From Verrucomicrobium spinosum DSM 4136 = JCM 18804 (GTDB lineage: Bacteria > Verrucomicrobiota > Verrucomicrobiia > Verrucomicrobiales > Verrucomicrobiaceae), in NCBI RefSeq assembly GCF_000172155.1, contig NZ_ABIZ01000001.1, positions 5,055,105-5,119,104 on the forward strand: 64,000 bases of DNA. The letters are read 5' to 3'. The notes under the pieces are model-generated. The model saw only the letters and a list, made by a program, of their open reading frames with translations. It did no database searches and was not told the origin of the DNA. Shown piece by piece: positions 132-24,525 of this stretch. Within the stretch, counting starts at the first letter, position 1. The number at the start of each line of letters is the position of its first letter. The translations under genes and the position numbers were made by a program.

Positions 132-139
132 ACTCCCGC

Positions 140-3715: not shown

Positions 3716-3754
3716 GAAAATATGTTGGAGTGCCGTCCCGCATGCGGGACGGAA

Positions 3755-5335: not shown

Positions 5336-5359
5336 GACATTCAGAGTAGTTTCATCACC

Positions 5360-5698
5360 CTACCACATCGCCGGACGGCACCCGTGCGTCAGGTACGTCA
5401 CCTGCTCCGCCGGAGGCTGCTCCGCACCGCCAGTCGCTTCCTCCGCCGCCAGTGCCTTCAGTGCCATGTCCGTCAGCACCACCAACTCAGCCGAGGTCAT
5501 GCCCCGCAGGTGCGAAGACGAACCACCCTCCGGAGTGGAGAGAGCAGTGCACAGCATATCCCCCGTCAACACCCCCTGGACGGCCAGATCATTGTAATTC
5601 TCCAGCCAGGCCTTTGCCGTCACCCCACCAGGCAACTCCGCCTGCCGTCTCGCAGACCGCACAATCGAAGGAATGAGTAAAGCCGCGTCAATAGCCAC
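5360..5698 (-). CDS. Small phage protein in the head-joining (gpW-like) position
   Basis: 112 residues, mostly helical, with no Cys cluster or membrane segment. It occupies the place of the head-tail joining gene W between terminase and portal in lambda-like phages. The sequence itself does not show the gpW signature and it is longer than the roughly 68 residues of lambda gpW. A head-completion role is inference from position only. It is separated from the upstream gene by 10 bases. Confidence 0.5.
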   Translation of the reverse strand: MAIDAALLIPSIVRSARRQAELPGGVTAKAWLENYNDLAVQGVLTGDMLCTALSTPEGGSSSHLRGMTSAELVVLTDMALKALAAEEATGGAEQPPAEQVTYLTHGCRPAMW

Positions 5699-5708
5699 GT
5701 GCGCCCCC

Positions 5709-6206: not shown

Positions 6207-6240
6207 TAGCGTTCCATCAGCGTCAATTAGTGGTTCCACT
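6207..6240 (-). repeat. Phage stop-to-start leader repeat, copy 2
   Basis: On the minus strand this lies between the TGA of the large terminase and the ATG at 6206. It reads AGTGGAACCACTAATTG, then ACGCTGATGGA, then ACGCTA before ATG. It is the closest relative of the 2762-2797 copy. An in-frame GTG lies within it, so it could also be read as codons, but the conservation with a non-coding copy argues for a sequence element. Confidence 0.6.
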
Positions 6241-9017: not shown

Positions 9018-9734
9018 ACCCGCCCGCCCCTGTCAATCGTTCCCCCCTCCCTCCCACCAGGGCGGCCGCCCAAACCCGCCCCAAACCGCCCTGGCAGGGC
9101 AACAAATAATTTCAACCATTCCCCCTCAAAAAGGGGGCAAGACCCAAACCCGCCCTCTTTTGGGGTGGGAGGGGAATAGATTCCTTATGGGGGTGGGGGT
9201 GGAGTTCCTGAAAGTGGCGAATGCTGCCCCTTTTGGGGCTGAGAGTCTCCGTTAGGGGTAAAAACCTTCAAAACCTTCCCTTACCTCCCCGATTCCTTGG
9301 ATAATCGGGGGAAAGATCACCGGGGTGGTTTCGGCAGCAAGGCTGATGGTCAAGGGTGGTTCCATCTAGAGCAGGAGGAACGGAGGCGGAAAAACGGTCT
9401 AGAACCGGGGTGGTCGGGGAGGTTTTGGGTGGTCCCTATTTTTAACTCAGGGGGTACGGGGGACGGGGAGCGGCTCAACCCAGCTGCCATCAGCCCGCCT
9501 ACGGCGCTACAGTGCGCCGCTGCGCGGCGAGGGATCATGCCGGCAGAGTGACCGCGCTGGTAGGCTCGTAGTGCACCGTGCCAGGTTCTGGCCATGCCGG
9601 TAGGCCCGTGGCCACGCATGACCCTACGGCCGCGCTCCTGCTCAGGCCTGCCCTATCCAGGGTCATGGCCATGCCCGGCAGAGTGGCCGCGCGCCTGGCT
9701 CTGCCGGCAGATACCGTGCAGATCTGATGCACCG

Positions 9735-9768
9735 CACAAGCGGCCGTGCACGTGCACGATCGCTTGTG
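9735..9768. repeat. 34-bp nested palindrome
   Basis: Outer arms CACAAGCG and CGCTTGTG surround a perfect 14-bp palindrome, CGTGCACGTGCACG (9745-9758), all sharing one centre. Only 2 positions on each side interrupt the symmetry. This is the kind of site a dimeric DNA-binding protein recognises. The same phage encodes a ParB-like protein at 15378-18107, but binding is untested. Confidence 0.75.
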
Positions 9769-9788
9769 GCGCGCTCGCTGCCAGGATC

Positions 9789-9813
9789 ATGGCCATCACC
9801 AGGTGATGGCCAT
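9789..9813. repeat. 25-bp perfect palindrome
   Basis: Arms ATGGCCATCACC and GGTGATGGCCAT flank a single A. It lies 20 bases beyond the nested palindrome and repeats the ATGGCCAT word found at 9665. No frame that uses it as coding sequence is credible. It is part of the candidate origin or partition region. Confidence 0.75.
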
Positions 9814-9889
9814 ATGGTACGGATGTGCTCCCAATTGGATACTGCAGGAGCAACCTGGTCGAAACAATCCTACCAGAAACCTCCCCAGC

Positions 9890-11797: not shown

Positions 11798-12935
11798 ACC
11801 TAAGCCCCTCCACGATTGCCCGCCCTTTCAGAGGCGCGGGATTGAAATACAAAAGTCTCTGGTTCCGCCGGCCATCCGAGAACGGCACGAACTGGAGCAT
11901 GGCACGCCCCTTGTCATCCCGTAGCGCCTTCCCATCAGGCCCCTTTTTCTGGTGCATCTTCCCCTCGCGCCACGTGCACGGCAGACGGGGGTACAGCAGG
12001 CCGTGCATGGCCTGGCCGTCAGCACCCAGGATCTCCAGCACCACCCGGGCGTTTTCATTGTGCACCTCCGCCTGCCACTCTTCCTCCGTCGCCTTATCCA
12101 GGCGCACCACAGCGTGCAGAGATCTGCCGCCGCTCGCAATGATGGCCACAATCCGGATCTGCGCACGCACCAGGGCATTCAGCCACAGCTCGAAGGGTGC
12201 CTTATCGCTCTCCAGCAGCAGATACGGCCACCGTTGCACCGAGTCCTTTGTGCGACGGCTCATCGTCAGCTTGCCCCGTTGGGGCCGCCATTTGCCATCG
12301 ACCGGCTGCATCAGCCAGTTCATCCCTTCCGGAGAACCCAAGGGCATCGCCGCCGGCTCCGCCTTCGTGCCAGGTGTCTTCGCCAGCTTGTACGTCCCCT
12401 TGCCGATCCAGCGCATGAAGCCGCCCGTGGATCGCATATTCTCGAAAACCATGATCTTTTCCCCAGGCTCATACAGAGCATCCAGGAACGTCTCCGCCGT
12501 CATCATGACCGGATCTGTGGGCGAACGCTCCCTCAGCCACTTGATCCACCTGGCCCAATCCATCACCAGGGCAGGGTCCTGCACTGCCTCCAAGGCCGAC
12601 AGGTCAAACTTCACCTTCTTCTTCCGAGGCTGCTCAGACGCCATCCACCCCGCCTCACCCTTCGCCACCTGCTTCCCATCCAACAGGTAGCCCCGTGGCT
12701 CTTTATGAGCGGCATTCCGTGCCGAGTTGAGTTTGTACATCAGCTCACGATCTGTCCAGGGCGGCACACACTTCTGGTTCCACTCCTGCATCAGGCCCAT
12801 CGCTTCCTCAGGTTCGAGCCCAAAACCCCATACCAGGATACACGCCACGCCAAAGGTCACAGCAGAGCCATTATGGCCCTCCTCCGCACCCGGCCGCGTA
12901 TCCAGCAGCTTCCTCGCTCGTTCGATGATAGTCAT
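11781..12935 (-). CDS. Phage replication protein, possible primase
   Basis: 384 residues. The N-terminal part (NGSAVTFGVACILVWGFG, then MQEWNQKCVPPWTDRELMY) resembles the PriCT-like helical domain of phage primases. The later segment ASGGRSLHAVVRLD is typical of archaeo-eukaryotic primase (prim-pol) relatives, where GGR-x-LHA precedes the metal site. It overlaps the helicase gene, so the two products probably work together. No zinc finger is visible. The catalytic acidic pair is not certain from reading alone. Confidence 0.6.
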   Translation of the reverse strand: MTIIERARKLLDTRPGAEEGHNGSAVTFGVACILVWGFGLEPEEAMGLMQEWNQKCVPPWTDRELMYKLNSARNAAHKEPRGYLLDGKQVAKGEAGWMASEQPRKKKVKFDLSALEAVQDPALVMDWARWIKWLRERSPTDPVMMTAETFLDALYEPGEKIMVFENMRSTGGFMRWIGKGTYKLAKTPGTKAEPAAMPLGSPEGMNWLMQPVDGKWRPQRGKLTMSRRTKDSVQRWPYLLLESDKAPFELWLNALVRAQIRIVAIIASGGRSLHAVVRLDKATEEEWQAEVHNENARVVLEILGADGQAMHGLLYPRLPCTWREGKMHQKKGPDGKALRDDKGRAMLQFVPFSDGRRNQRLLYFNPAPLKGRAIVEGLRFEHSS

Positions 12936-12987
12936 AGTCGCTTCACTCCAGACACCAGACTAGAAGACTCCAGACACAAGACCTGAC
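12936..12987. repeat. AGAC-word repeat, copy A
   Basis: The gap contains CCAGACACCAGACTAGAAG followed by ACTCCAGACACAAGACC. The 11-mer AGACACAAGAC also occurs at 53706-53716 and, on the minus strand, at 62785-62795. No promoter or terminator shape is evident. Function unknown. Confidence 0.5.
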
Positions 12988-13683
12988 TCATGCCAGGCCT
13001 TCCAGCACTCGGAATTCAGTCACCCACACGACAGGATTCTCATCCCAGGCACCCGCACCGTAGAGCCCATCCCAAACGAGTTGGAACGCGTGCCGATGAT
13101 CCCGAATATCATCACTGCAACCTGTCAGCTCATCCGTAATCTGCACCCCTTCCGCTTTCGCACCTTCTTCTGTGATCTCCTGAAGCCTTTCCAGGTGAAC
13201 ACTTACCACATTCAAAAGGATGCGGGCAGCCTCACGGGGCATATGAATTGAAGGGGTCCAGGGCTGGCAGCCAATTACTGAACGCTGCTCATCTTCATCA
13301 TAATCAGCCCGGTAAAGCCAATTAGCCGAAATACCCTCAAACTTCGGAAAGCCCCGATGCGGACGAACGTCAAAGCAAGTTTCACGCACCCACAAAGTCT
13401 CACCAGGCCTGGCATAAGGCGTCGTGATCTCAATCGATCCCTCCTCCGGATACTCATCGATCCAAATCTTGAACACGCCATTGAACCAACCCTGGCCAAC
13501 GCTTTCCTTTGTCGCAGGCTCACCATCAGCTCCGCCGCCGACAAAATCAAAACACTCAACGACTCGCCCCAGCGCGACACGGCGCGTATTCTTCTTGAGC
13601 CCCGCTCGAGTTGCTCTCACCATTTGCCCGTTCATTAAGACAGGCCGTTCACCAAGTTCATGCGCAGCAATATCAGTGATCAT
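12988..13683 (-). CDS. ASCH-like phage protein
   Basis: 231 residues. The N-terminal segment RPVLMNGQMVRATRAGLKKNTRR matches the opening of ASCH-domain phage morphogenesis-like proteins (RPI-x-F-x5-RA-x2-GxKTQTRR). PGETLWVRETCFDV matches the conserved GD-x-LWVRE segment. These domains are RNA/nucleotide-binding folds related to PUA. In phages the role is not settled. It sits between replication and early genes. Its ATG at 13683 lies behind a short copy of the leader repeat. Confidence 0.68.
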   Translation of the reverse strand: MITDIAAHELGERPVLMNGQMVRATRAGLKKNTRRVALGRVVECFDFVGGGADGEPATKESVGQGWFNGVFKIWIDEYPEEGSIEITTPYARPGETLWVRETCFDVRPHRGFPKFEGISANWLYRADYDEDEQRSVIGCQPWTPSIHMPREAARILLNVVSVHLERLQEITEEGAKAEGVQITDELTGCSDDIRDHRHAFQLVWDGLYGAGAWDENPVVWVTEFRVLEGLA

Positions 13684-13707
13684 AAGTGTTCAATCAGTGG
13701 TTTCCTA
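13684..13707 (-). repeat. Phage stop-to-start leader repeat, short copy
   Basis: On the minus strand, TAGGAAACCACTGATTG then AACACTT runs from the TAG stop of the 103-residue gene to the ATG at 13683. The first 12 bases (TAGGAAACCACT) are identical to the copies at 2762-2797 and 32340-32356. It lacks the middle 11-base unit of the longer copies. Confidence 0.6.
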
Positions 13708-14016
13708 CACCTTCCCCATATCCACGAGCTGGCCCCAGTGCGCTTGCACTACCCTGCTCAGCTCATCACCCATTTCCCGCGACGACTTCCACCCAGAGCG
13801 GACCAGCTCGCAGGCCTGGCCCCACTGCCCCCGCAGAGACTCCCACTCCATCTCATTGTCCACCTTCTCCGGCTCCGCCGGCAGGTCCGCATAGTATCGC
13901 CGCTGGTAGCCCGGCGAATCCGCCAGGTACCGCTCCACCACGGCAATCGTCTGCCCACTCACCCCTGGCAGATCAAGGATGGCCCGCAGCGTTGTTTCAT
14001 CAGGCCAGTCAGTCAT
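13705..14016 (-). CDS. Small phage protein, unknown
   Basis: 103 residues, acidic and helical, Trp-rich (MTDWPDETT, EWESLRGQWGQ, AHWGQL). No recognised domain. The ATG at 14016 overlaps the stop of the upstream ribbon-helix-helix gene by 4 bases, which marks it as part of a coupled early operon. The stop codon is TAG and begins the short leader repeat. Function cannot be inferred. Confidence 0.55.
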   Translation of the reverse strand: MTDWPDETTLRAILDLPGVSGQTIAVVERYLADSPGYQRRYYADLPAEPEKVDNEMEWESLRGQWGQACELVRSGWKSSREMGDELSRVVQAHWGQLVDMGKV

Positions 14017-14291
14017 ACCTTGTCGTCAGAGCGAGGTTGGGGTGGTGGCGAAGGGAGCGCAGGCCTTTCCGGCTCCAGCACAAGCTCCATCTCCTGGAGA
14101 GAAGGCTCCGCTGGCTCCTCCGCCTTGATCTCCAGGACAACCGCCAAGTTAAACGGCAGATCCACGCCCATGGCAGACATCAGGAGGCGATGCTGGATCA
14201 GCTCCCCAGGCGTCATCTCAAAGACCGCCGCCTTAGCTTCTAGAGCCTCCACTACCTTGTCCGGGAGGCTGAAGGTGATTCGCTGGCTCAT
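14013..14291 (-). CDS. Ribbon-helix-helix-like small protein
   Basis: 92 residues. It begins SQRITFSLPDKVVEALEAKA: a strand followed by helices, as in CopG/Arc DNA-binding proteins, then FEMTPGELIQHRLLMSAMG. The C-terminal half is acidic and Pro-rich. Probably a DNA-binding repressor or accessory factor. It overlaps both neighbours by 4 bases (ATGA junctions). Confidence 0.6.
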   Translation of the reverse strand: MSQRITFSLPDKVVEALEAKAAVFEMTPGELIQHRLLMSAMGVDLPFNLAVVLEIKAEEPAEPSLQEMELVLEPERPALPSPPPQPRSDDKV

Positions 14292-14842
14292 ACGATCTCA
14301 AACCCTTTCCCCTTGAGGAACTCGCTATTGATCTTCTCCGGCCAGTCCGCCGGCCATTTCAAATGCCCCACCACATTGCCCGTGGTGACATCCTGCACCA
14401 TGGGCAACCACCCCTCATCCCTGTAAGCCACAAGCTTCAGCCCGTAGCCTAGAAATCCCAGGCAGAGCCGGTCCGCATCGAAGACTGCCTGCACCAGCAC
14501 ACAATCCTCTCGCTCAGTCGCCGCCCGCACCGTCAGACTCCCACGCTCGCCCCACGACACGCGCAGATCCTGTTCCGTCCACCCAGCACACTGGAGACTG
14601 TGCCGCATCTCCGCGCAGGTCTTCTGATAGAGCCGTAATGCTCCCGTCAGGTCCACAAGACGCGGCTCCAGATCACTTACCGCGGACTCCCGAGCCTTCT
14701 TCGTGATCTCATTCACCACAGCTCCCTTCAACTCCGCCAGTCCAGCCATTCGCTGCACCGTGGCACCAAAGTTCCAGAGCATACCAACCCCGACCCCAGC
14801 CAGAAACACCCCCAGGGCAAACCAAGGCATCCAGCTCATCAC
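14288..14842 (-). CDS. Phage membrane-anchored protein, unknown
   Basis: 184 residues. A single N-terminal membrane segment at about 5-25 (WFALGVFLAGVGVGMLW), then a soluble coiled-coil-like region and a globular C-terminus with no known motif. The topology suggests a cytoplasmic or periplasmic domain tethered to the inner membrane, as in superinfection-exclusion or lysis accessory proteins, but no motif supports either. It overlaps the neighbouring genes by 4 bases at each end. Confidence 0.5.
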   Translation of the reverse strand: MMSWMPWFALGVFLAGVGVGMLWNFGATVQRMAGLAELKGAVVNEITKKARESAVSDLEPRLVDLTGALRLYQKTCAEMRHSLQCAGWTEQDLRVSWGERGSLTVRAATEREDCVLVQAVFDADRLCLGFLGYGLKLVAYRDEGWLPMVQDVTTGNVVGHLKWPADWPEKINSEFLKGKGFEIV

Positions 14843-15348
14843 GCATCCCTCCTTTCCAGCCGGATAAAAATAGCGCGCCTGGCCAGGTCGGGACAGAGTT
14901 TGATCCCATCACCGCTGATCACCGTCACCGTGGCAAGATTCCGCTGCACGATATCCTGCGTCCCCCGAAGACGATACTGCCACAGGTGAGCCGAGACCCA
15001 TCGGGAGACTAGTTCACTTTCCCTCTTATTAAGGGCGCGGCAATCATCCACCCACAAGCATGGGCTAAATTTGTCCGCCACACCGGCCAACATATTCTCA
15101 TCGAACGACCAGCAAACAGCAGGAGCCATATCGTACGACTCCAAGACCCGGCGCACCAACGTGGACTTCCCACTCCAGGGCTCACCATCCACGCAAACCA
15201 GTGGCGGCCGGAAAACTTTCCGTTCCAGCGTGGAGGAGCACCTGGCCACGCCCACCCAATAGGCGAACAGCAGCGCGTTCTTCCGGCTCTCCTGGTCTGC
15301 AAACCTGAACCCGTCCAATAGCTGAAATGCGTCTTCGAAACCTTTCAT
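14839..15348 (-). CDS. Short phage P-loop ATPase
   Basis: 169 residues. Walker A DGEPWSGKST at about 54-63, Walker B CLWVDDC at about 96-102, and a C-terminal segment TVISGDGIKLCPDLARR that mirrors the sensor segment of the 635-residue helicase (LMTGNELKLNDDLERR). It therefore looks like a stand-alone copy of the helicase ATPase core without the DNA-binding N-terminus. A degenerate duplicate or a loader subunit are both possible. It ends by overlapping the membrane protein gene. Confidence 0.6.
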   Translation of the reverse strand: MKGFEDAFQLLDGFRFADQESRKNALLFAYWVGVARCSSTLERKVFRPPLVCVDGEPWSGKSTLVRRVLESYDMAPAVCWSFDENMLAGVADKFSPCLWVDDCRALNKRESELVSRWVSAHLWQYRLRGTQDIVQRNLATVTVISGDGIKLCPDLARRAIFIRLERRDA

Positions 15349-15377
15349 AGTCGTGTGTCTTGAGAGTGGATTGATAG

Positions 15378-18107
15378 TTATTTCTTCTTCCCCGCCTTCT
15401 TCACGGGAACCTTCTTGGCCGCTTTCTTCGCCGCCTTTTTCGCGACACTCTTAATCTTCGCCGGCGAGGTTGGAGTACCACCTTTAGGGGGCTCAGGATC
15501 AGTCGCAGGTTGCACCTTCGGAGCAGCAATGATCGTCACTCCACCCTGATCCACATCCAGCAGGCGAAGCTGCAAGCCACCACGCTCAGGCGAGGCACAG
15601 TAAACCGGGAGTGAAATCGTAAGATCCAAGGAGTTCACCCCTGATCGGGTCGTGAAATCTTCCCTTGAAATCACCTCACCCTGCAACTCGTGCCCACCGG
15701 ATACCCAGGCGACCACAGTACCCACGGGAGTATCCAGAGAAGCCTCACCCTTCAACTCTGCCACGGCCGCCCGCACCTTTGCTACGAGCTCCTCCAAGAC
15801 TTCAATATTGCAGGTTGAAGCTCGATAATCTGGCAATCCACCTTCGGCCGCAATCGTGTTTACCCAAGCGATGAACTCGTCAACGCTCGCCTGCACATCA
15901 TCGATGTAGGTATGTCCCGCAGCCTCGTACAAGCACACCAAATCATTCTCCAGAGCGCAGCACCTTTGCATCTTCTCTGTAACGCTCAACTCCTCATCAC
16001 TGACGCACTGCCCACTGCCCACTGACGCACTGACCCCAAGCTCCTCCACCACCCGCCGAGCCGCCAGCACGATCAGCTCCGCGTCCGCCAGGCCGTGATT
16101 CGGATCACTGTACGGCTTCAGCCCGTTGTCTTTGGCGATGATGTCCAGCCACTTCACCAGCTCATCCGTGTGCTCCAGGTCGTCATCATCATAGACGTTC
16201 CCCGCCTGCACATACAGGTCCACCAGCTCCTTCTCCAGGGCCACGCGACGGTCCACCATCTTGGCAGCATCCACCGCTTCCTGGTTCACTGTCTTCCCCT
16301 TCCCTTTACCCGCGTCCACCTTCGCCAGGCGCTTCACCGCGTCCATGTCCACGCCAAAGGTTCGCGCCAACAACAGGAATGGCTCATTCTTTGCCACCGG
16401 AGAATCCCCGTCCACGAACCCCAGCCGTTCACCCGCCAGACACATCACCACATAGGCCTCCAGCTTTGGCCGCGTGTAGTCGGCCGCTTTGTAGTGCTCC
16501 AGGATCGGCAGGATGAAATCTCGACCGCTCCCCTGGTACCCAGGCTCACCTCTCTTCCGGGGCTGAAGCTTCAGCGCCTTCCCCATCACCATCACCCCTT
16601 GTGCATTCATCATCCCCAGCAGGCTCTGGAGCACCACCAGGCCCTCATCCTCACCATACCCCCCACGCTTCACCACCGCTTCACCCAGGGCGTTCAGTGC
16701 CTCATAGGATTCCGCCACCGCCACCTTCTTCTCCTCAGCCCGCTTCCTCTCCGCCGCCTTGAACGCACCGTCCCCACTGCCAGCCGCTGGCCGCTTGCCA
16801 AAGAGGCTCGTTGCCCCCTTCGCTTTCGCGGCCTGGTTCGCCGCCTCAATGGCTTCATCACGCTTCACCAGTTGGTGGATTCGGCCGGTGTCTGGATTCC
16901 GGGCCACCGTCACCTTCACCTCGCAGGGCGATCCCTTCACCACCTGCTCCCACTTTGGCAGGCTGTCTTCGTCGTAGTGCCCCACATCCTGAGGGCGCGG
17001 CTTCGCGGCCAGGTCCACGTACTCGCTGTCACCCCGCACCGAGCCCTCCACAAACACCGCCTTCGCCCCCTGGACGGACAGCACGTTTTTCCCGGAACCC
17101 TCCGCACTGGCCACCACCAGCTTCCACGCCGCCTCTTGCTTTCTCCGGAAGCAAGACGGCTTCGTGCAGACATGGGGATCAACCCCCATCGATCCGCCGC
17201 CACTCTGTCCACCCACCACCTTCAGCTCCTCCTGGAGACTGGCATCATTGCCACTGCGGAAAGGGCACCCCATGCAAGCCCCACCACAGAGCCGCTCCCC
17301 CTGGGCGGAAAATTGCACAGGCAGCAGCTCAGCATCATCCACATCGAACCCACAGCCCTTCAGGGACAGCATGTAGTCCCGGCGGATCAGCGCCACCGTC
17401 TCCCGTACGTTCAATGGCAGATCCTTGTCCCGCATCTGCGGAGCCAGGATGGCCTTTGCCAGCTCCTCCCGCGCCTCCACATCAGGGATGCGCCCCACCA
17501 GCTCACAGTGCCGGGAGCCGATCACCCCTTTCTCACAGGCCTCCAGCAGACGCTTCGGCGCACGGCGCAGCTTCAAGCGTTGCGTCACGTGCGATTCAGA
17601 CCGCCCTATCCGCTCCGCGATCTTCGCCACCGTGTAGAGCGGCTGCCCATCCTCCCCCTTCAGCGCCAGCAGATCCGCGTACCCGTCCGCTTCCTCCACC
17701 ACCGTCAGGTCCTCCCGCTGGAGGTTTTCCACCAGCATGAACTCCCGCGCCTGCACGTCAGACATGTCCTCCACCATGCACGGCAGCTCACCCAGCTTTG
17801 CCACCAGGCGGTGCACCTGCTCCACATCATCATAGTTCACCACACGGTCCAGGGCCATGCCATTGCCCCGCCACCGACGCGCCCCGGCAATGATCTCATA
17901 CTGCCCCGCCACCGTCCTGGACGGCCGCACCAGCAGGGGCTGCTTCACCCCCATCTCCTCAATGTTCTTACTCAGCTCCTCCAGGGGGCCGGGCTTGAAC
18001 TCCTTGCGCGGATTCAAGATGCACTCATGCAGATTTTCGTGGGGCAGGTACACCACCGTGGCCCTGGTCGGCGCAGGGGCCGCTTCCGTTGATTGTGTCG
18101 CGATCAT
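15378..18107 (-). CDS. Large ParB-like phage protein with Cys clusters
   Basis: 909 residues, two to three times the usual ParB size. ParB N-domain: LNPRKEF (31-37), QYEIIAGARRWR (69-80) and MLVENLQREDLTVVEEADGY (124-143). HTH: TVAKIAERIGRSESHVTQRL (159-178). Then CGGACMGC (274-281) and CTKPSC (314-319), a possible zinc site. The remaining ~580 residues are acidic helical blocks, and the protein ends in Lys/Ala repeats (KKAAKKAAKK). Such proteins bind DNA and may use CTP. Roles could be partition, replication control or transcription. A clear AAGGAAA ribosome site precedes the ATG. No ParA is seen. Confidence 0.82.
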   Translation of the reverse strand: MIATQSTEAAPAPTRATVVYLPHENLHECILNPRKEFKPGPLEELSKNIEEMGVKQPLLVRPSRTVAGQYEIIAGARRWRGNGMALDRVVNYDDVEQVHRLVAKLGELPCMVEDMSDVQAREFMLVENLQREDLTVVEEADGYADLLALKGEDGQPLYTVAKIAERIGRSESHVTQRLKLRRAPKRLLEACEKGVIGSRHCELVGRIPDVEAREELAKAILAPQMRDKDLPLNVRETVALIRRDYMLSLKGCGFDVDDAELLPVQFSAQGERLCGGACMGCPFRSGNDASLQEELKVVGGQSGGGSMGVDPHVCTKPSCFRRKQEAAWKLVVASAEGSGKNVLSVQGAKAVFVEGSVRGDSEYVDLAAKPRPQDVGHYDEDSLPKWEQVVKGSPCEVKVTVARNPDTGRIHQLVKRDEAIEAANQAAKAKGATSLFGKRPAAGSGDGAFKAAERKRAEEKKVAVAESYEALNALGEAVVKRGGYGEDEGLVVLQSLLGMMNAQGVMVMGKALKLQPRKRGEPGYQGSGRDFILPILEHYKAADYTRPKLEAYVVMCLAGERLGFVDGDSPVAKNEPFLLLARTFGVDMDAVKRLAKVDAGKGKGKTVNQEAVDAAKMVDRRVALEKELVDLYVQAGNVYDDDDLEHTDELVKWLDIIAKDNGLKPYSDPNHGLADAELIVLAARRVVEELGVSASVGSGQCVSDEELSVTEKMQRCCALENDLVCLYEAAGHTYIDDVQASVDEFIAWVNTIAAEGGLPDYRASTCNIEVLEELVAKVRAAVAELKGEASLDTPVGTVVAWVSGGHELQGEVISREDFTTRSGVNSLDLTISLPVYCASPERGGLQLRLLDVDQGGVTIIAAPKVQPATDPEPPKGGTPTSPAKIKSVAKKAAKKAAKKVPVKKAGKKK

Positions 18108-18128
18108 GGTCTTGTTATTTCCTTTTGT

Positions 18129-18731
18129 TTACTGGTCCTTCTTCAGCTTCTTCCCACCCCGCCGGTTGCAGTTGCCTTTCTGCACATCCCGGTACTTCTC
18201 CCTGGCGGCCTCCGATTTCGTGCCGCCGAAAAGTTTGAATCCCTTCACACCCCAGCGCTGGAGCAGCTCCTCCACCGTCCGCTTCTCCCGCGCATGCACG
18301 GCCGCCCGTGTCTCATCCAGCAGCCAGGCCACCTCCGTTTGGGATACCCCTTTGATCAGCAGCGGCTTCACCCGCCGGGTGACCGCCAGCACATTCTTCA
18401 TCACGCACCAGGGCGATCTGGCACCGGACCACAGATAGTTCAGCAGCGCCTTCAGCGTCCGCACCCGCTCCCGGTCCACCATCTGCTGGAGCCCCTTACA
18501 GATTTCCTCAAACCGCTCCTCCAGCACGTCCGGATGCTCATACTTCACCCTCGCCATCAGCTCACCGACCGATTGCGCCAGAGCGGACAGGTCCCGCGGA
18601 TCATCCTCCTTCGTGCCCGGCTCCATCAGGTCCCCCAGGGGCATCCGGTCGTCCACCACCACCGGCTCACCATCCACGTACACCACAGGCGGTACGTACT
18701 GCTCAGCGAAGTCCGCTTGAAAATCTGCCAT
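18129..18731 (-). CDS. Phage early protein, unknown
   Basis: 200 residues. Helical, with a highly basic C-terminus (NCNRRGGKKLKKDQ). TRRVKPLLIKGVSQTEVAWLL near residues 116-136 could be a helix-turn-helix. It is 21 bases upstream of the ParB-like gene and probably cotranscribed. A DNA-binding accessory role is plausible but not shown. Confidence 0.5.
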   Translation of the reverse strand: MADFQADFAEQYVPPVVYVDGEPVVVDDRMPLGDLMEPGTKEDDPRDLSALAQSVGELMARVKYEHPDVLEERFEEICKGLQQMVDRERVRTLKALLNYLWSGARSPWCVMKNVLAVTRRVKPLLIKGVSQTEVAWLLDETRAAVHAREKRTVEELLQRWGVKGFKLFGGTKSEAAREKYRDVQKGNCNRRGGKKLKKDQ

Positions 18732-18748
18732 GGGAGTATGTGAGGTTG

Positions 18749-19069
18749 CTAAGGTCCGTCTGGATCAAGTGTGTGGTCATTGGCTGCTCTGCTCTTACCG
18801 TCCGCGCCGGCAGCCAGGGCAGCGCGGGGGCGTGGCTCAATCACGGGCGGAATAGGCGGCGGCACCATGCTGGCCATCTGCACCGCCCGGCACAGCGCCA
18901 CGTGCTCATGCACGCCCGCTAGCAGCTCAGTGAACCGCATCCGGATCTCCGTCACATCCGCCCGGAGCAACGGCGTAGGCACGTCCCGGTAGAGCGCAGC
19001 CAGGCGCTCGTGGACAGCCTTGCAGGCCTCCACGATCTCCTCCGCACTGCTCACCAGGTCCGCCGGCAT
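18749..19069 (-). CDS. Phage early protein, unknown
   Basis: 106 residues, largely helical (SSAEEIVEACKAVHERLAAL) with a Pro-rich C-terminal tail. No motif recognised. The ATG at 19069 follows the TAA of a 55-residue gene after 5 bases, so it belongs to the same early operon. Confidence 0.5.
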   Translation of the reverse strand: MPADLVSSAEEIVEACKAVHERLAALYRDVPTPLLRADVTEIRMRFTELLAGVHEHVALCRAVQMASMVPPPIPPVIEPRPRAALAAGADGKSRAANDHTLDPDGP

Positions 19070-19074
19070 GGCGC

Positions 19075-19242
19075 TTACTCAGCCCCCTCCGTGGTTGGAC
19101 GATCCTCAGGACGGTCGCACACGTGTGCGACCGTATCGCCCAGTTCATCAAGTATCAGTAACGGCAATTGCTCACCTGCCACAGAGCTGCCAGCGCCAAC
19201 CAATACCATCTCCATCCAAGCGTTGTGTTCGTCCCAGGGCAT
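19075..19242 (-). CDS. Small phage ORF, 55 residues
   Basis: ATG at 19242 to TAA at 19075-19077, starting MPWDEHNAWMEMVLVG. It fits exactly between two genes: the upstream stop is 2 bases before its ATG and the downstream ATG is 5 bases after its stop. That tight packing is the main support. The product is acidic, with no recognised domain. Easily missed because of its length. Confidence 0.6.
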   Translation of the reverse strand: MPWDEHNAWMEMVLVGAGSSVAGEQLPLLILDELGDTVAHVCDRPEDRPTTEGAE

Positions 19243-19244
19243 GA

Positions 19245-19511
19245 TCAGTGATTGCTAGTTGTTTCCGGGTACTCCCCGGCGAGCATGCGGTTCTGCACGT
19301 CCTCCACGGCCGCGACCGCGTAGAATTCCCGCCCCTCACTCCGCGCCGTAGGCTTGCGGCAGCACGGCTCCAGCCACCCGGCGGACCGGGCATCCTCGAA
19401 TACCTGGCGCGTCAGCAGCACGATCACCTCCGCCTGCGTGAGCACCTTGGTGAGGGGCAGCGCCGCCTGGCGTGGCTTCCACTTTGGTTTCTGGAACACC
19501 AGGCCACTCAT
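19245..19511 (-). CDS. Small phage protein, unknown
   Basis: 88 residues. Basic N-terminus, then LTQAEVIVLLTRQVFEDARSAG and VEDVQNRMLAGEYP. The order helix, basic patch (CCRKPTARSEGREFY), helix recalls excisionase-like or MerR-like small winged helices, but the match is weak. It overlaps the upstream gene by 4 bases. Confidence 0.5.
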   Translation of the reverse strand: MSGLVFQKPKWKPRQAALPLTKVLTQAEVIVLLTRQVFEDARSAGWLEPCCRKPTARSEGREFYAVAAVEDVQNRMLAGEYPETTSNH

Positions 19512-19933
19512 CGCCCGCCGCCCCCTTTCACGGCCACCATCTTGACCACCAGCCAGGCCAGCGCCGCCACCAGCCCCAGGGCAAGCAGCTCGATCCCAAG
19601 GAAGGCCAGCAGAGTATGCTCATGCACCAGGCGCAGCAGCCACGGCGCGACCGCAGGCACCACGTGGCACGCACAAGATCTCAGCGGGGGCAAGCCCTCC
19701 AGGGCCAGCGCCGGCTGCTCCTCCGGAGGCAGATCCTCCAGGCGAATACGGACCGCCTTCCCCTGTCCCCGCTCAAAGACAGGCGGGAGATTGAAGTGAG
19801 GCACCGCCGCCGAGAGCTGCCCCAGCGCTTTCGCCGTCGCATCCGCACGATTCAGCGCGCCAATGATCCGCAGCGTCCCCTGCGCCGGAGTGTAGCCGGT
19901 GACATGCACCGTGAAGTGCGCCTTGAAGTTCAT
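19508..19933 (-). CDS. Phage protein with C-terminal membrane segment
   Basis: 141 residues. N-terminal strand-rich domain (FKAHFTVHVTGYTPAQG) and a hydrophobic helix at about 105-133 (HTLLAFLGIELLALGLVAAL) ending in a short basic tail, so it is probably tail-anchored in the inner membrane. No known family. It overlaps both neighbours by 4 bases. Confidence 0.5.
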   Translation of the reverse strand: MNFKAHFTVHVTGYTPAQGTLRIIGALNRADATAKALGQLSAAVPHFNLPPVFERGQGKAVRIRLEDLPPEEQPALALEGLPPLRSCACHVVPAVAPWLLRLVHEHTLLAFLGIELLALGLVAALAWLVVKMVAVKGGGGR

Positions 19934-20361
19934 GACGCCCCACCCCCTTCTTTCAGATTGGGCAGCTCCACCGTGATCCCCTCGCTCGACAACTCCACCA
20001 GGCGCAGAGGAAAGGTCTTCGATCCACGGAAGACCGTCACAGGAAACAGGTCCCTCAGCTCAGCACGATAGGAGGCATTCAACGCCCATCGCACGCCCCG
20101 GCCATTCCCAGGCGGACGCAGTTTGCGGCGACTGATCGCCCGGGGCGCGATCCGCAGGATTCCCAGGTTCAGATCAATTTGCAGCTCCACCCGGTGCCCC
20201 AGGGCTGCAAAGCCACCCACCTCCACCAGGCGGGGAGAGAGGAAGAAGATCAGGTTGCCCGCCGCGCTCCCCGTTGGGTGCAGGTGCGCCACGATCTCTG
20301 ACGCAGCCCGCCGCCCAGAGCCGCCACGCCGCACATCCAGGTCCACAGTCTTCCAGGCCAT
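19930..20361 (-). CDS. Phage early protein, unknown
   Basis: 143 residues, strand-rich and basic (DVRRGGSGRRAASEIVAHL, PRAISRRKLRPPGNGRG). No motif recognised. Its ATG shares one base with the TGA of the upstream gene (TGATG), a sign of coupled translation. Confidence 0.5.
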   Translation of the reverse strand: MAWKTVDLDVRRGGSGRRAASEIVAHLHPTGSAAGNLIFFLSPRLVEVGGFAALGHRVELQIDLNLGILRIAPRAISRRKLRPPGNGRGVRWALNASYRAELRDLFPVTVFRGSKTFPLRLVELSSEGITVELPNLKEGGGAS

Positions 20362-20750
20362 CAGCGAGGCCCTCCCTTCACACTCAGCAGCTCGCGCACT
20401 TGATTCATCCCCGCGTATCCACGGGACGCCAGTCGGACCAGCTCACAGAATCCACGTACCGACTCCCCATCTATGTCGCTAGGTGCACCCAAAAGCTGGA
20501 GGAGCATTTGCCCCAGTTTGGCCGCCGCCTGCTCCCCAGTACTGGCGGCATTCTTGGCACCGATCCCCTGCCGATAGTGCCGGACAAAGGTATCAACGGC
20601 GGACGCATCCACAGGCTCATTCCGCCAAACAGCATCCTTCTTACCAGCTGCCAGATACCCCCTGAAATCAGCCAATGCTTGCGCCTTTTCGGCGGCATCA
20701 TCCGTTTCCTCGAACTCATCGCCACGAGCTTCTCCATGCTCCACGCTCAT
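20361..20750 (-). CDS. Phage early protein, unknown
   Basis: 129 residues from the ATG at 20750 (MSVEHGEARGDE). Longer readings upstream overlap the preceding gene and were rejected. GGAAGGGAGG lies about 10 bases before this ATG. The N-terminus is acidic, the rest helical (AEKAQALADFRGYLAAGKK, LGQMLLQLLG). Function unknown. Confidence 0.55.
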   Translation of the reverse strand: MSVEHGEARGDEFEETDDAAEKAQALADFRGYLAAGKKDAVWRNEPVDASAVDTFVRHYRQGIGAKNAASTGEQAAAKLGQMLLQLLGAPSDIDGESVRGFCELVRLASRGYAGMNQVRELLSVKGGPR

Positions 20751-20752
20751 AT

Positions 20753-21187
20753 TCACGCGGCCCTCCCTTCCCCTGCCGCGTTTGCACGCTCGTTCACCTG
20801 GAGGCGGATCATCGTCCCACCCTCGACCAGGTTCGACCAGCCCTGATGCGGGCTGGCATAGAGCATGGCCCCGAATCCAGGGCGCGCCACATGACGGCTC
20901 CCCACGTACCACACCCCACCCACATACCGGCGGAGCCAGCGGCCAGCCACCCCGCGCCAGTCCCGCATAGCGAGAGACCCCAGCCGGGAGAGCCGCTTGG
21001 CGACCACATCCCGGCGGAGTCTGGTTCCGCGTTGCCCCAGCTTTTCAGCCAGGTACCGGAGCGCAAGCACATCCGCGTGCACCCCTTCATCATTCCGCAG
21101 TCCACCCACCTCTGCGCACATCGCCGGCATCCTGACGGACTGCGCACCGGCCCCTGGTCTTCTTCTGCCTGTATTATTAGTTTTCAT
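20753..21187 (-). CDS. Phage early protein, basic, unknown
   Basis: 144 residues from the ATG at 21187 (MKTNNTGRRRPG), chosen because AAGGAAAAGGAAAT lies just upstream and longer forms overlap the preceding gene. Arg-rich, with a block RLRRDVVAKRLSRLGSL that could contact nucleic acid. No domain recognised. The stop lies 2 bases before the next start. Confidence 0.5.
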   Translation of the reverse strand: MKTNNTGRRRPGAGAQSVRMPAMCAEVGGLRNDEGVHADVLALRYLAEKLGQRGTRLRRDVVAKRLSRLGSLAMRDWRGVAGRWLRRYVGGVWYVGSRHVARPGFGAMLYASPHQGWSNLVEGGTMIRLQVNERANAAGEGRAA

Positions 21188-21242
21188 CCCAGTAGTTATT
21201 TCCTTTTCCTTGGTTGCTGCACCGCCAGCCAAAGCGGTGAAA

Positions 21243-21464
21243 TCACTTCGTCGCCACCATGGCGACACGCCGCAAAGCGGACCTCTTACCCCGCCGCTTC
21301 GCGCCACCTGCAGATTCCGGAGAGGGGTTCACGAAAGCGTGCACCGCGTCACAAATGACCGCATCGATGCTCTTCTTTTCGCTCGACGCCCTCTCCAAGA
21401 GTCTTCTCACGTCATCAGGGCCTAGGCCGGCCTCCGACAGGTTCAGGTTAATGGTCGCATTCAT
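21243..21464 (-). CDS. First early phage gene, ribbon-helix-helix-like
   Basis: 73 residues from ATG 21464 (an ATG at 21488 is possible). MNATINLNLSEAG looks like a beta strand, followed by helices PDDVRRLLERASSEKKS and DAVICDAVHAFV, the CopG-like pattern. It has a basic tail (AKRRGKRSALRR). It is divergent from the regulator at 21559 and is the first gene of the long leftward operon, so a Cro-like or antirepressor role is reasonable. No Shine-Dalgarno sequence is evident at either start. Confidence 0.5.
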   Translation of the reverse strand: MNATINLNLSEAGLGPDDVRRLLERASSEKKSIDAVICDAVHAFVNPSPESAGGAKRRGKRSALRRVAMVATK

Positions 21465-21466
21465 CG

Positions 21467-21476
21467 TTTCGAACAG
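21467..21476. promoter_or_regulatory. Putative second operator half-site
   Basis: TTTCGAACAG directly upstream of the leftward gene repeats the TTCGAACA core of the operator at 21524-21540. Two related sites in a divergent intergenic region fit a lambda-like switch. The short length makes chance occurrence possible. Confidence 0.35.
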
Positions 21477-21523
21477 ATTACACCCCATTAATTATCCATT
21501 TCGGACAACTGGCAAGAAAAAAG

Positions 21524-21540
21524 TTGTTCGAATCGAACAA
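21524..21540. promoter_or_regulatory. Palindromic operator between divergent phage genes
   Basis: TTGTTCGA, one A, then TCGAACAA: a perfect 8-bp inverted repeat 19 bases before the ATG of the regulator. The size and position fit a dimeric HTH repressor site controlling both the regulator and the leftward early operon. The intergenic region is clearly AT-richer than its surroundings. Confidence 0.6.
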
Positions 21541-21558
21541 TACCCTTACCTATTGAGA

Positions 21559-21957
21559 ATGGAGCCAGACCAATTGCGCCATTTACGAGAGTCCCGAGGC
21601 ATGACCCGCGAAGCCCTTGCTGAGTGGCTAGGAGATTGCTCCGCCTCTACGGTGAACAAGTGGGAACGAGGAATGCACGCCATCCCCGGATGGGTGGAGC
21701 AGAAGATGTTGAGCGATCTCCATCTGAACCTCCCTTTGAAAGCCATTCACGCCCTGATGAATCACGCGCAAAGCACAGGGCAGGACTTCGCCAGCACACT
21801 GGCCCTGGCCATCCAGCAGTATCTAGGCACCGAGGAAAAGACCAAAGAGACGGGCACCACCTACAACAAGCCAGCGAGCAAGATCACCGAATTTCCCCTC
21901 GCGGCTGAAGAACGCACGCACTACAAGGCTCCCCGCCAGAAACCCACCGCCTCCTAA
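21559..21957 (+). CDS. Cro/CI-family phage transcriptional regulator
   Basis: 132 residues from ATG 21559. The N-terminal HTH_3 domain reads MEPDQLRHLRESRGMTREAL then AEWLGDCSASTVNKWERG, the classical helix-turn-helix of Xre/Cro proteins. The C-terminal half has a helical LPLKAIHALMNHAQSTGQDF region and a basic tail. It is the only phage gene on the plus strand in view, divergent from the early operon, with a palindrome in between. No LexA-like protease domain is present, so it is not a cleavable CI repressor. Likely the lysogeny switch or an immunity regulator. Confidence 0.78.
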   Translation: MEPDQLRHLRESRGMTREALAEWLGDCSASTVNKWERGMHAIPGWVEQKMLSDLHLNLPLKAIHALMNHAQSTGQDFASTLALAIQQYLGTEEKTKETGTTYNKPASKITEFPLAAEERTHYKAPRQKPTAS

Positions 21958-22056
21958 TTTTGCCCGCACCCCCACCGAACGTAATACCCTATTCCAGGTT
22001 CTACGGTCAATAGTTGGATATACGGGCAAGTAAAACTTTCGGTGTACCTAAAGAAA

Positions 22057-22086
22057 AAGCCACGACACCGCAAGGCACCGTGGCTT
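22057..22086 (-). terminator. Rho-independent terminator
   Basis: On the minus strand, arms AAGCCACG and CGTGGCTT enclose an inner GTGCC/GGTGT stem with a TTGC loop, and the hairpin is followed by TTTTTCTTT. It lies 18 bases past the stop of the secreted-protein gene at 22104-22760 and close to the probable right edge of the prophage. Confidence 0.8.
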
Positions 22087-22103
22087 CGAAATTTCTACTG
22101 CTC

Positions 22104-22760
22104 TCAGTTTGGCCGGGAGATCCAGCGCTGAAGCGTGCGGCCATCTATTTCCTTGACCCCGTCCCTAGCAGTCATTCCGCGGATCACGTCACCCTCCGCC
22201 ACCTTTTCCTTCACACCCTCCACGTAGAGCGGAGTGGAGTAGTCCGTCCAGGCAGGCTCAGCGGCCGCCGCCCTACCACCCACGAGCGCACCCACGGCAC
22301 GGGCCGCTGCACCAGGCGCACCGCCTTCGTTGTGCTTGTAGCAGACCAGCGCCCCGTCCGGCAGCACCTGGTGCACCCTCAGCGACCGATTCACCCACTC
22401 AAGATTTTCCAGACGCTGCTGACTCTTCCGCTCCTCACTCTGCAACTGCATTTTCTCGCGCAGCTCCCTCTTCCCGTCCGCCGTCGCCTTTGCCCTGGTC
22501 ACACGAGCCAGCTCCGCTTTCGCGGGATCAAACGCAAAGGCCTCCCGGATCTCCGCCGGCAGCTGCTCATACGGCACCCGGGCCACACCGTCCGCATGCG
22601 TGATCCGCAGCCCGTCCGGTTCCACCGCGCTCACTTTCACAGACCGGTATTCCTTCCCGGTGGAGATCTTCAGTAGGTCCCAGCCCGCCGGCGTCTCCGC
22701 CTGGCACGGTTGCAACACCACCCAGCACAGCCCGGCTACAGCGAGGATTCCCGTCTTCAT
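22104..22760 (-). CDS. Secreted protein of a Verrucomicrobia-type family
   Basis: 218 residues. Signal peptide at 1-20 (MKTGILAVAGLCWVVLQPCQA). Then the pattern DLLKISTGKEYRSVKVSAVE, PDGLRITHADG and FAFDPAKAE, which I know as a recurring secreted-protein type in Verrucomicrobia with no assigned function. The middle is a charged coiled coil. The C-terminal part (VCYKHNEGGAPG, YVEGV) is a separate small domain. It is the first host-like gene right of the phage. The family memory supports the taxonomic guess but was not searched. Confidence 0.65.
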   Translation of the reverse strand: MKTGILAVAGLCWVVLQPCQAETPAGWDLLKISTGKEYRSVKVSAVEPDGLRITHADGVARVPYEQLPAEIREAFAFDPAKAELARVTRAKATADGKRELREKMQLQSEERKSQQRLENLEWVNRSLRVHQVLPDGALVCYKHNEGGAPGAAARAVGALVGGRAAAAEPAWTDYSTPLYVEGVKEKVAEGDVIRGMTARDGVKEIDGRTLQRWISRPN

Positions 22761-23091
22761 GACGGCATTTTACTCCTCAGCTTTGCAGTCCGCAACCTCG
22801 ATGGCAATTCGCCAAAAGCACACTCCGTTTAGCACACAGATTCCGCACGCCTTATTTTATGGGCCTTGCATCTTCTTGTTGTTTTTGTTGTGACAAAATA
22901 AACACGGGTGCGAATTTTTATCAATTGAACATAATAATCCACTGGGAATTGATATCCTTGCTGAATCAAGCAATGCCTGTTTCAGCGGGTGTAAAGCGCT
23001 TTTGGCGTCTTAAGCTGCATAAAATCGACATTTTGGCAGAGGCAAAGGTGTAAATTTCTCGAAAGAGCCACCCACATGCGTAGGGTGCGGC
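22761..23091. other. Intergenic region, AT-rich, divergent promoters expected
   Basis: 331 bases between the divergent secreted-protein gene and the TerD-fusion gene. From 22850 to 23050 it is markedly AT-rich compared with the flanks. No convincing paired -35/-10 hexamers with 16-18 base spacing were found, and no gene is supported. Confidence 0.4.
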
Positions 23092-24525
23092 ATGCCAATC
23101 ACTTTACCCAAAGGCGGAAACATCTCCCTGTCCCCCGAAGAGCATTCCGATGGAAAACTGGCTGTAGGACTTGGATTCAGCGCCACTCCTGGACTCCACA
23201 GCCCTATCGATGTCGATGCGAGCGCTTTCCTGCTAGGCGAAGACGGGAGAGTGAGGCGGGGAGCCGACTTCATTTTCTACAATCAGCCCTCCGACGAGGA
23301 GAGCCGTTTCATCTGCCTTCTAGAGAACTCTCCCGGGCAGTCCGCAAACCCAGTCACCGAGGAGACGGATTCGGACCACGTCCGATTCTCCATCGATCTG
23401 GAAGCAATCCCCCCAGAGATTCACAGGATCGTCTTCTGCCTGACCTTGCATGGTGCCGAAGAAAGACAGCAGAATTTCGGGTGCATCAAGAGACTCTATC
23501 TTCGCGTCCTGAATCGCACCCAGAATATTGAAACGGTTCGCTTTGAGGCTGTGGGCGAGTTTTCGACGGAGACGGCACTGCAGGTTTGTGAGCTCTATCG
23601 GCGGGGAGACGGCTGGAAGTTCCGGGCAATCGGCCAGGGATTCGCGGGAGGATTGGCGTCGCTTGCCACCGGATTTGGAGTGCACCTGGAGATGGCGACA
23701 GACACTGATGATCACCCCCCTGCCAAACAAGACGATTCAAGTGAGACAGCCAATTTTGAAGTTGTGCCTCCAAGCATCAGCAGCGGCAAGGCCCCGCCCA
23801 GTCTGACAGATGGTTTCAATCCAGAGCTCCCCTCACTCTCGAAGAAGAAGCGCAGATCCAGCTCAGAAATTTTGGCGGCGCAGACGGAGGAGATCGCCCG
23901 CGCAATGAAGCCGTTTCTCCCCCAAATCGGTCTTACTCTGAGAAACGCGGCGAATGAGAGCAGCACCCGCATCTTGCTTGACCGTATTTTGCAGCAGGTG
24001 TTGGGATACAGTCTCGAGGAGATCAAACCAGAGCACAAAATACAGGGGAGAACTGCCGACTACGTGCTCTCACCGGGCGGCGTCGATGCCGTGGTGATCG
24101 AGGTCAAGCGTATCGGCGCGCCTCTCAAACAGAAGCAAATCTTTCAGGCCACCAGCTACGCCGCCTACTCTGGGATCAAATGGGCTCTGCTCACCAACCT
24201 CATCACCTGGAAGCTCTATCGGGTGTCCACAACAGACAAGATCGAGCCCCACCTGGTTTTCACCATTGATCTGAACAAGGGGCTCTCTGAAGATGCCGCA
24301 CACTATCTGACCCTGATCTCGAAGAATGGCATCGTACGGAAAACACCTTTGGAGAGACTGTGGCAGATCCGGCGATCACTCTCTACTGAAAGCCTGATCG
24401 GAGCGATCCTGCATGATGATGTGCTGGGACGCATCCGCACACTTATCGCCAGAGACACCGGCATCAACCTCGACACAGCGGACATCAAGGCTGCTCTGGA
24501 GCAGGACATTCTAAAAATTGAATAG
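23092..24525 (+). CDS. TerD domain fused to a PD-(D/E)XK type IV restriction-like nuclease
   Basis: 477 residues. Residues 1-200 are a TerD domain: MPITLPKGGNISLS, IDVDASAFLLGEDG (39-52), DFIFYNQ, SIDLEAIPPEIHRIVF, and ELYRRGDGWKFRAIGQGF (167-184). A polar linker (200-255) follows. Residues ~265-400 match the HSDR_N/COG2810 nuclease type: ADYVL (Asp323), VVIEVKR (Glu337, Lys339), QATSYAAY (Gln352, Tyr356), GIKWALLTNLITWKLY. The catalytic set looks intact. TerD domains bind calcium; the usual GDN loop is altered here (LENSPGQ). It stands alone between the prophage and plsC. Expected role: nucleic-acid cleavage triggered by a stress or phage signal sensed by TerD. Confidence 0.82.
   Translation: MPITLPKGGNISLSPEEHSDGKLAVGLGFSATPGLHSPIDVDASAFLLGEDGRVRRGADFIFYNQPSDEESRFICLLENSPGQSANPVTEETDSDHVRFSIDLEAIPPEIHRIVFCLTLHGAEERQQNFGCIKRLYLRVLNRTQNIETVRFEAVGEFSTETALQVCELYRRGDGWKFRAIGQGFAGGLASLATGFGVHLEMATDTDDHPPAKQDDSSETANFEVVPPSISSGKAPPSLTDGFNPELPSLSKKKRRSSSEILAAQTEEIARAMKPFLPQIGLTLRNAANESSTRILLDRILQQVLGYSLEEIKPEHKIQGRTADYVLSPGGVDAVVIEVKRIGAPLKQKQIFQATSYAAYSGIKWALLTNLITWKLYRVSTTDKIEPHLVFTIDLNKGLSEDAAHYLTLISKNGIVRKTPLERLWQIRRSLSTESLIGAILHDDVLGRIRTLIARDTGINLDTADIKAALEQDILKIE

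What the first reader, a model, noticed from the sequence alone, without database searches (positions are those of the whole stretch)
23092..24525. TerD domain fused to an intact-looking PD-(D/E)XK nuclease next to a prophage
Seen: a full TerD domain (residues 1-200), a polar linker, and a nuclease domain with Asp323, Glu337-x-Lys339 and a Gln352-x3-Tyr356 element. Known: TerD proteins belong to Ter stress modules linked in the literature to metal sensing and DNA processing, and COG2810/HSDR_N domains are type I/IV restriction-like. Inference: a single-gene effector in which calcium or metabolite binding by TerD controls DNA cleavage. It stands alone, without other ter genes, directly beside a phage genome.
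Basis: partly seen in the sequence, partly recalled or inferred. Interest (0 to 1): 0.75.

Follow-up and report, generated by a model that had tools for sequence, protein, structure and literature searches.

The report
TerD-fused DNA nuclease, single gene
One bacterial gene joins a stress-response (TerD) domain to an apparently intact DNA-cutting domain, and relatives of this same fusion turn up in distant bacteria and in temperate phages, so it looks like a mobile stress- or infection-triggered DNA cutter rather than a one-off, although nobody has yet tested what it does.

Summary
In detail: window 23092-24525 (+) encodes 477 aa, TerD (Pfam 3.9e-54) plus an HSDR_N_2 PD-(D/E)XK nuclease with D323, E337, K339, Q352 and Y356. 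Two parts of the interpretation fail. (1) Calcium: three or four of the six side-chain ligands of the known TerD Ca2+ site are lost in all 12 fusions examined, while 226 of 238 stand-alone TerDs keep at least five. (2) Phage adjacency is secondary: two related Verrucomicrobium genomes carry the gene at the same place (dnaE | gene | plsC-cmk-aroA) without the prophage, a 45.6-kb insertion with att repeats and integrase. The nuclease domain has dN/dS 0.012-0.017, below dnaE and dnaN.

New here: the fusion is a family (Verrucomicrobium, Methylococcales, viral contigs). Its nucleases form one clade (98/91) that also holds three zinc-ribbon versions. Every fusion-bearing genome tested also has ordinary TerDs (10/10, against 10/30 controls). 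Methylococcales carry a second TerD fusion to a different, Can2-like nuclease.

Best reading: a mobile one-gene effector whose TerD domain couples the Ter system to DNA cleavage, probably for defence; function unproven. New variant of a known kind; interest 0.6.

The parts
23092..24525 (+). CDS, 477 aa TerD-HSDR_N_2 fusion protein (P0001)
   Evidence: dN/dS 0.047-0.061 against two congeners
23092..23676 (+). TerD domain, residues 1-195
   Evidence: PF02342 E 3.9e-54; PDB 2kxt/3ibz by sequence; 3ibz Z 22.2 by structure
23320..23379 (+). residues about 77-96: place of the TerD Ca2+ loop (GDNxTGxGDGDDE in ordinary TerD), here LENSPGQSANPVTEETDSDHV; D78, D88 and E89 not kept
   Evidence: ligand numbering from PMC8779313
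23677..23856 (+). polar, disordered linker, residues 196-255
   Evidence: pLDDT under 50 over about 204-247; fast-evolving
23857..24522 (+). nuclease module, residues 256-477, with C-terminal helical tail
   Evidence: PHROG 17239 over 265-476; modelled alone at pLDDT 91.8; dN/dS 0.012-0.017
23956..24237 (+). HSDR_N_2 PD-(D/E)XK core, residues 289-382; D323 (24058-24060), E337 (24100-24102), K339 (24106-24108), Q352 (24145-24147), Y356 (24157-24159)
   Evidence: closest solved folds BpuSI 3s1s Z 13.3, HsdR 3h1t Z 13.1, DrdV Z about 12
22901..23091 (+). 5' intergenic region with two blocks shared with the congeners (ATTTTTATCAATTGxACAT and AAATTTCTCGAAAGAxCCACC...TGCGTAGGGTGC)
22883..22905 (.). 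right end (attR) of the prophage insertion: TTTTGTTGTGACAAAATAAACAC; 18-bp core shared, one mismatch, with the left end at G000 5032354-5032371
   Evidence: tyrosine integrases beside the left end
1..22882 (-). right part of the 45.6-kb prophage (head, protease, portal, terminase, primase, ParB-like genes); not part of the conserved locus
   Evidence: absent at this place in L007 and L008
24646..27712 (-). conserved right flank: plsC-type acyltransferase (24646-25257), Cmk-type kinase (25254-25961), aroA (ORF 25964-27712); dnaN and dnaA further on
   Evidence: Pfam for acyltransferase, EPSP synthase, DnaN, DnaA; Cmk named from sequence; synteny in L007 and L008

Best explanation
The gene encodes a self-contained effector: a catalytically intact PD-(D/E)XK DNA nuclease of the HsdR_N/type IIG-like branch, tethered by a flexible linker to a TerD domain that has lost the usual calcium loop. 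SHOWN by sequence or model: both domains; conserved catalytic residues; very strong purifying selection on the nuclease; a stable chromosomal place in the genus; a family spread over two bacterial phyla and viral contigs, from one nuclease clade; and co-occurrence with ordinary TerD genes. INFERRED: the TerD part is the control or docking module that listens to the cell's Ter system, through a non-calcium ligand or a TerD-TerD contact; when stress or infection engages Ter, the nuclease is released or clustered and cuts DNA. The likely benefit is defence against phages or plasmids, or in temperate phages exclusion of competitors. In Verrucomicrobium it would be a long-established, possibly domesticated, copy.
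For: Nuclease: Pfam; D/E/K/Q/Y in 17/17 fused rows; fold nearest BpuSI, HsdR and DrdV; dN/dS 0.012-0.017 versus DnaE 0.028-0.031 and DnaN 0.022. Family: fusions in six Methylococcales genomes plus two truncated copies in a seventh and in viral contigs L309, L311, L312; 14 TerD-fused rows (two of them the truncated copies) and 3 zinc-ribbon nucleases form one clade, 98/91, against the stand-alone relatives; a single clade of the fused TerDs is not rejected, p-AU 0.164. Ter link: ordinary TerDs in 10/10 fusion genomes versus 10/30 others, Fisher p 0.0004; 7/7 versus 10/30, p 0.002, without Verrucomicrobium; in L311 an ordinary TerD with all six ligands lies 4 bp upstream of the fusion. Sensor-effector logic: a second TerD fusion in Methylococcales bears another nuclease whose profile's best non-TerD PDB hit is the CARF nuclease Can2, E 0.0021. 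Phage setting: LexA/CI-type Peptidase_S24 proteins immediately upstream of the nuclease in 8/43 viral loci, 0/43 downstream.
Against: No activity, ligand, partner or phenotype has been measured. In Verrucomicrobium and Methylococcales the gene sits alone among housekeeping genes, not in defence islands, and its slow evolution is unusual for a defence gene. No PADLOC family matches convincingly (best E 0.0011 for P0001). Co-occurrence with TerD is not corrected for phylogeny, and the controls were not drawn at random. In most of the viral loci no repressor domain was detected immediately upstream, several loci are near-duplicates, and most of those nucleases lack TerD.
Confidence: 0.5

Rival explanations
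1. A Ter-dependent DNA-processing or repair enzyme, not defence: the nuclease trims or nicks the cell's own damaged DNA under oxidative or metal stress, and TerD recruits it.
For: Fixed place in the genus beside dnaE and plsC-cmk-aroA, and dN/dS below DnaE and DnaN; solitary in housekeeping neighbourhoods in Methylococcales.
Against: Patchy distribution: within the family only Verrucomicrobium has it; the same clade occurs in viral contigs; nearest folds are restriction nucleases.
Confidence: 0.25
2. A phage accessory (moron) gene for superinfection exclusion; the chromosomal copies are leftovers of older prophages.
For: Fusions or close zinc-ribbon relatives in contigs with Mu-type transposase, pRha and CI-type repressors; in Verrucomicrobium the gene lies just beside a site where a prophage has integrated.
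Against: In both congeners the locus has no prophage; Methylococcales copies have no recognised phage neighbours within about 8 kb; strong selection argues against a relic.
Confidence: 0.15
3. One reading: Ca2+ binding by TerD switches the nuclease.
For: TerD family membership; D40 and D42 are kept.
Against: D78 and D88 are lost in 12 of 12 fusions and E89 in 11 of 12, and in several Methylococcales proteins much of the loop is deleted; 226 of 238 stand-alone TerDs keep at least five of six ligands.
Confidence: 0.05
4. The nuclease fold is used for DNA binding or as a scaffold, without catalysis.
For: Some PD-(D/E)XK proteins are inactive (general knowledge).
Against: No loss of D, E or K in any of 17 fused rows; dN/dS 0.012-0.017.
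Confidence: 0.05

Closest known systems
TerD/TerE/TerZ proteins of Ter systems (PF02342; structures 2KXT/2KXV, 3IBZ)
   Same: Full TerD fold and sequence, about 38-40% identity, including the D-x-D-A-S element.
   Different: Ca2+ loop lost; fused to a nuclease; not encoded in a ter cluster.
Stand-alone HSDR_N_2 nucleases (COG2810-like; PHROG 17239)
   Same: Same domain, motifs and C-terminal helical extension, about 22-32% identity.
   Different: These are roughly 230-320 aa without TerD and form separate branches.
Type I HsdR and type IIG enzymes (EcoR124I, BpuSI, DrdV)
   Same: Nuclease fold and D...ExK...QxxxY layout.
   Different: No helicase motor, methyltransferase or specificity domain.
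CARF nucleases Can2/Card1 (DUF1887)
   Same: Works-like comparison only: N-terminal sensor-type domain plus C-terminal PD-(D/E)XK nuclease; the second TerD fusion family carries a Can2-like nuclease.
   Different: No CARF domain; no CRISPR link tested; ligand unknown.
TerD in predicted conflict systems (Anantharaman 2012, cited in PMC7824862; Kaur 2020, PMC7159879)
   Same: Those authors propose TerD as a sensor of nucleoside-like or specialised nucleotide signals.
   Different: Hypothesis; no HSDR_N fusion mention was found in texts I could read; the 2012 paper is not held.

Membership tests
TerD family (PF02342) | profile match above curated cut-off | tested here: met
   183 bits versus 25.3
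TerD family (PF02342) | TerD fold | tested here: met
   3ibz Z 22.2, rmsd 2.8 over 172
TerD family (PF02342) | Ca2+ ligands of K. pneumoniae TerD | tested here: not met
   3 of 6 side-chain ligand positions match in this protein; 2-3 of 6 in all 12 fusions
Ter operon component | encoded with other ter genes | tested here: not met
   no ter neighbour in Verrucomicrobium or Methylococcales loci; exception: viral contig L311 with an adjacent TerD
HSDR_N_2 PD-(D/E)XK nucleases (PF13588) | profile match above curated cut-off | tested here: met
   31.7 versus 25 bits
HSDR_N_2 PD-(D/E)XK nucleases (PF13588) | catalytic D, E-x-K and QxxxY | tested here: met
HSDR_N_2 PD-(D/E)XK nucleases (PF13588) | DNA cleavage | not testable with these tools
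   needs enzyme assay
Type I restriction-modification | HsdR helicase motor and HsdM/HsdS partners | tested here: not met
   no such domains in the protein; none among the scanned neighbours
CARF nuclease (Can2/Card1) | CARF domain N-terminal to nuclease | tested here: not met
   N-terminal domain is TerD
Known anti-phage systems (PADLOC) | convincing match to a system's core protein | tested here: inconclusive
   only weak nuclease-domain matches, best E 0.0011 for P0001 and 3.5e-5 for the Methylovulum protein

The most novel reading that the evidence does not exclude
TerD serves as an exchangeable sensor module for nuclease effectors, parallel to CARF: a calcium-free TerD lineage fused to at least two unrelated PD-(D/E)XK nucleases, triggered by a small molecule made by Ter or by a neighbouring cyclase (in viral contigs L311 and L312 a FIST-GGDEF protein with an intact GGEEF motif precedes the fusion), forming a Ter-based signalling immune system carried by both bacteria and temperate phages.
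Probability: 0.2. Interest if true: 0.85.

Novelty: new variant of a known kind. Interest (0 to 1): 0.6.

Why it matters
What TerD proteins do is a long-standing open question. A TerD domain hard-wired to a nuclease gives TerD a readable output (DNA cleavage), so ligands and partners can be screened directly. If the control is as proposed, it would give experimental footing to the idea that Ter systems sense a signal and process DNA.

Tried and rejected
A single-sequence viral scan found nothing, whereas the profile scan found 48 loci. Anantharaman 2012 is not held; searches for papers naming TerD with a fused restriction nuclease or HSDR_N found none, which is no proof of absence. NCBIfam has no match to P0001. 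Considered and rejected: prophage cargo; tRNA or other Rfam RNA as attachment site; ORF artefact (dN/dS); fusion as a genus oddity. No TerD-HSDR_N fusion in samples of Verrucomicrobiota outside the genus, Planctomycetota, Myxococcota and Actinomycetota; these are samples only. Four solved structures match P0001 by sequence at E up to 1, two of them TerDs and two chance-level, and the nuclease profile has no meaningful PDB sequence match.

Full report
THE GENE. The window is a stretch of an 8.22-Mb single-contig genome; 87-95% protein identity to two Verrucomicrobium strains places it in that genus, and genome size suggests V. spinosum (my inference). The ORF at 23092-24525 (+) is as described: TerD at residues 1-195 (E 3.9e-54) and HSDR_N_2 at 289-382 (E 1.7e-7), both above Pfam's cut-offs; the region 265-476 matches PHROG 17239 (E 2.5e-36). 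D323, E337, K339, Q352 and Y356 are present and conserved in every fused relative. An AlphaFold model from 60 rows (pLDDT 86.6) shows two confident domains and a disordered linker. TerD aligns to 3ibz (Z 22.2); the nuclease modelled alone (pLDDT 91.8) aligns best to BpuSI (Z 13.3), a Vibrio HsdR (13.1) and DrdV (about 12).

THE LOCUS. In BvORR034 (L007) and BvORR106 (L008) the same gene sits between dnaE and the plsC-cmk-aroA run, with no phage. In the window genome dnaE lies 45.6 kb away; the two edges carry an 18-bp near-identical core (TTTTGTTGTGAC[A/G]AAATA), one at window 22883 and one at genome 5032354, with tyrosine integrases beside the left edge and head, portal, terminase and ParB-like genes inside. 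The phage therefore inserted upstream of an existing gene. The nuclease domain evolves with dN/dS 0.012-0.017, TerD 0.084-0.108; DnaE is 0.028-0.031, DnaN 0.022, and the other neighbours measured (PlsC, Cmk, AroA, DnaA) 0.045-0.091. The gene's dS (0.57 and 1.23) is higher than that of most neighbours, so the ratio should be read with some care; the nuclease's dN is low in absolute terms as well.

THE FAMILY. A profile of the nuclease found TerD-nuclease fusions in Methylovulum psychrotolerans, five further genomes of its order and two truncated copies in a seventh, and in viral contigs L309, L311 and L312. Samples of other groups gave only stand-alone nucleases. In a 104-row tree 14 TerD-linked rows (including the two truncated copies, whose TerD part is not visible) plus three zinc-ribbon-nuclease rows form one clade (98/91), the zinc-ribbon rows nested inside (98/89): the N-terminal module seems to have been exchanged on one nuclease lineage. 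The fused TerD domains also cluster, and a single clade is not rejected (p-AU 0.164). In Methylococcales the fusion is solitary, each time in a different housekeeping neighbourhood.

CALCIUM. PMC8779313 lists the K. pneumoniae TerD Ca2+ sites. Of six side-chain ligands (D40, D42, D78, N79, D88, E89), 226 of 238 stand-alone TerDs keep at least five; all 12 fusions keep two or three. In L311 an ordinary TerD with all six lies 4 bp upstream of a fusion with two. The six second-type fusions also lack this loop by eye in the alignment.

LINK TO TER. All ten fusion genomes tested hold ordinary TerD genes besides the fusion, versus 10 of 30 genomes without it (p 0.0004; 7/7 versus 10/30 without Verrucomicrobium, p 0.002). 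Controls were taken from the search listing, not at random, and relatedness is not corrected.

A SECOND TERD NUCLEASE. The same search exposed six Methylococcales proteins (490-636 aa) with TerD and a different PD-(D/E)XK-like nuclease (YEIDVFFLI...LFIECKSG). Its profile's best non-TerD PDB hits are Can2 (E 0.0021) and VC1899 (E 0.8), both CARF nucleases; PMC7969007 shows Can2 to be a cA4-activated nickase and RNase that protects against phage. The resemblance is weak by sequence but falls on the catalytic stretch.

PHAGE SETTING. In 43 viral loci the gene immediately upstream has a Peptidase_S24 domain (LexA/CI type) in 8 and HTH_3 in 9; downstream 0 and 5. Several loci are near-duplicates. 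L307 and L308 carry Mu-type transposase. L311 and L312 have a FIST-GGDEF protein upstream (shown for L311) with an intact GGEEF motif, 97% identical between them although the fusions are only 66% identical, as if the fusion occupied a variable slot.

MECHANISM. Shown: domain content, conserved catalytic site, selection, family, loss of the Ca2+ loop, TerD co-occurrence. Inferred: TerD is the control or docking part, it listens to the Ter system by something other than that calcium site, and the output is DNA cleavage in defence or stress. Published authors treat TerD as a possible sensor of nucleoside-like signals (PMC7824862, PMC7159879), which is a hypothesis there too. I put the overall model at 0.5, own-DNA processing at 0.25, a phage exclusion gene at 0.15, and calcium switching at 0.05.

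NOVELTY. Both domains are known; I found no description of this fusion in the literature I could search, but the key 2012 Ter survey was not readable. I file it as a new variant of a known kind.

Noticed in passing
L355, L356, L357, L359, L361, L363 (Methylococcales): A second family of TerD fusions with a different, Can2/DUF1887-like PD-(D/E)XK nuclease, also without the TerD calcium loop.
   Followed up: partly
L311 1952-5672; L312 2511-5672: FIST-GGDEF protein (intact GGEEF) directly upstream of the TerD-nuclease in two related viral contigs; cyclase 97% identical but fusions only 66% identical.
   Followed up: partly
L307 4779-5672, L308 4809-5672, L310 4848-5681: Closest relatives of this nuclease carry an N-terminal CxxC...CxxC zinc ribbon instead of TerD, near CI-type repressors; L307 and L308 have Mu-type transposase genes.
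   Followed up: partly
window 1-22882 and G000 5032354-5077987: 45.6-kb prophage with att repeats; two integrase-family genes near the left end and a 909-aa ParB-like protein (window 15378-18107).
   Followed up: partly
window 23092-24525: Synonymous divergence (0.57 and 1.23) is higher than that of most neighbouring genes, perhaps weaker codon constraint or allele exchange.
   Followed up: no
L245 and L246 (genome G1063): Two diverged copies of the nuclease end, each at the very start of a contig, suggesting a duplicated fusion gene.
   Followed up: no
G000 5977210-5992799: Separate TerD-rich region with five ordinary TerD-domain genes, also present in both congeners.
   Followed up: partly
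L358, L360, L362, L364: TerD fused to a C-terminal region that looks like a TerF/vWA-type domain (by eye only).
   Followed up: no
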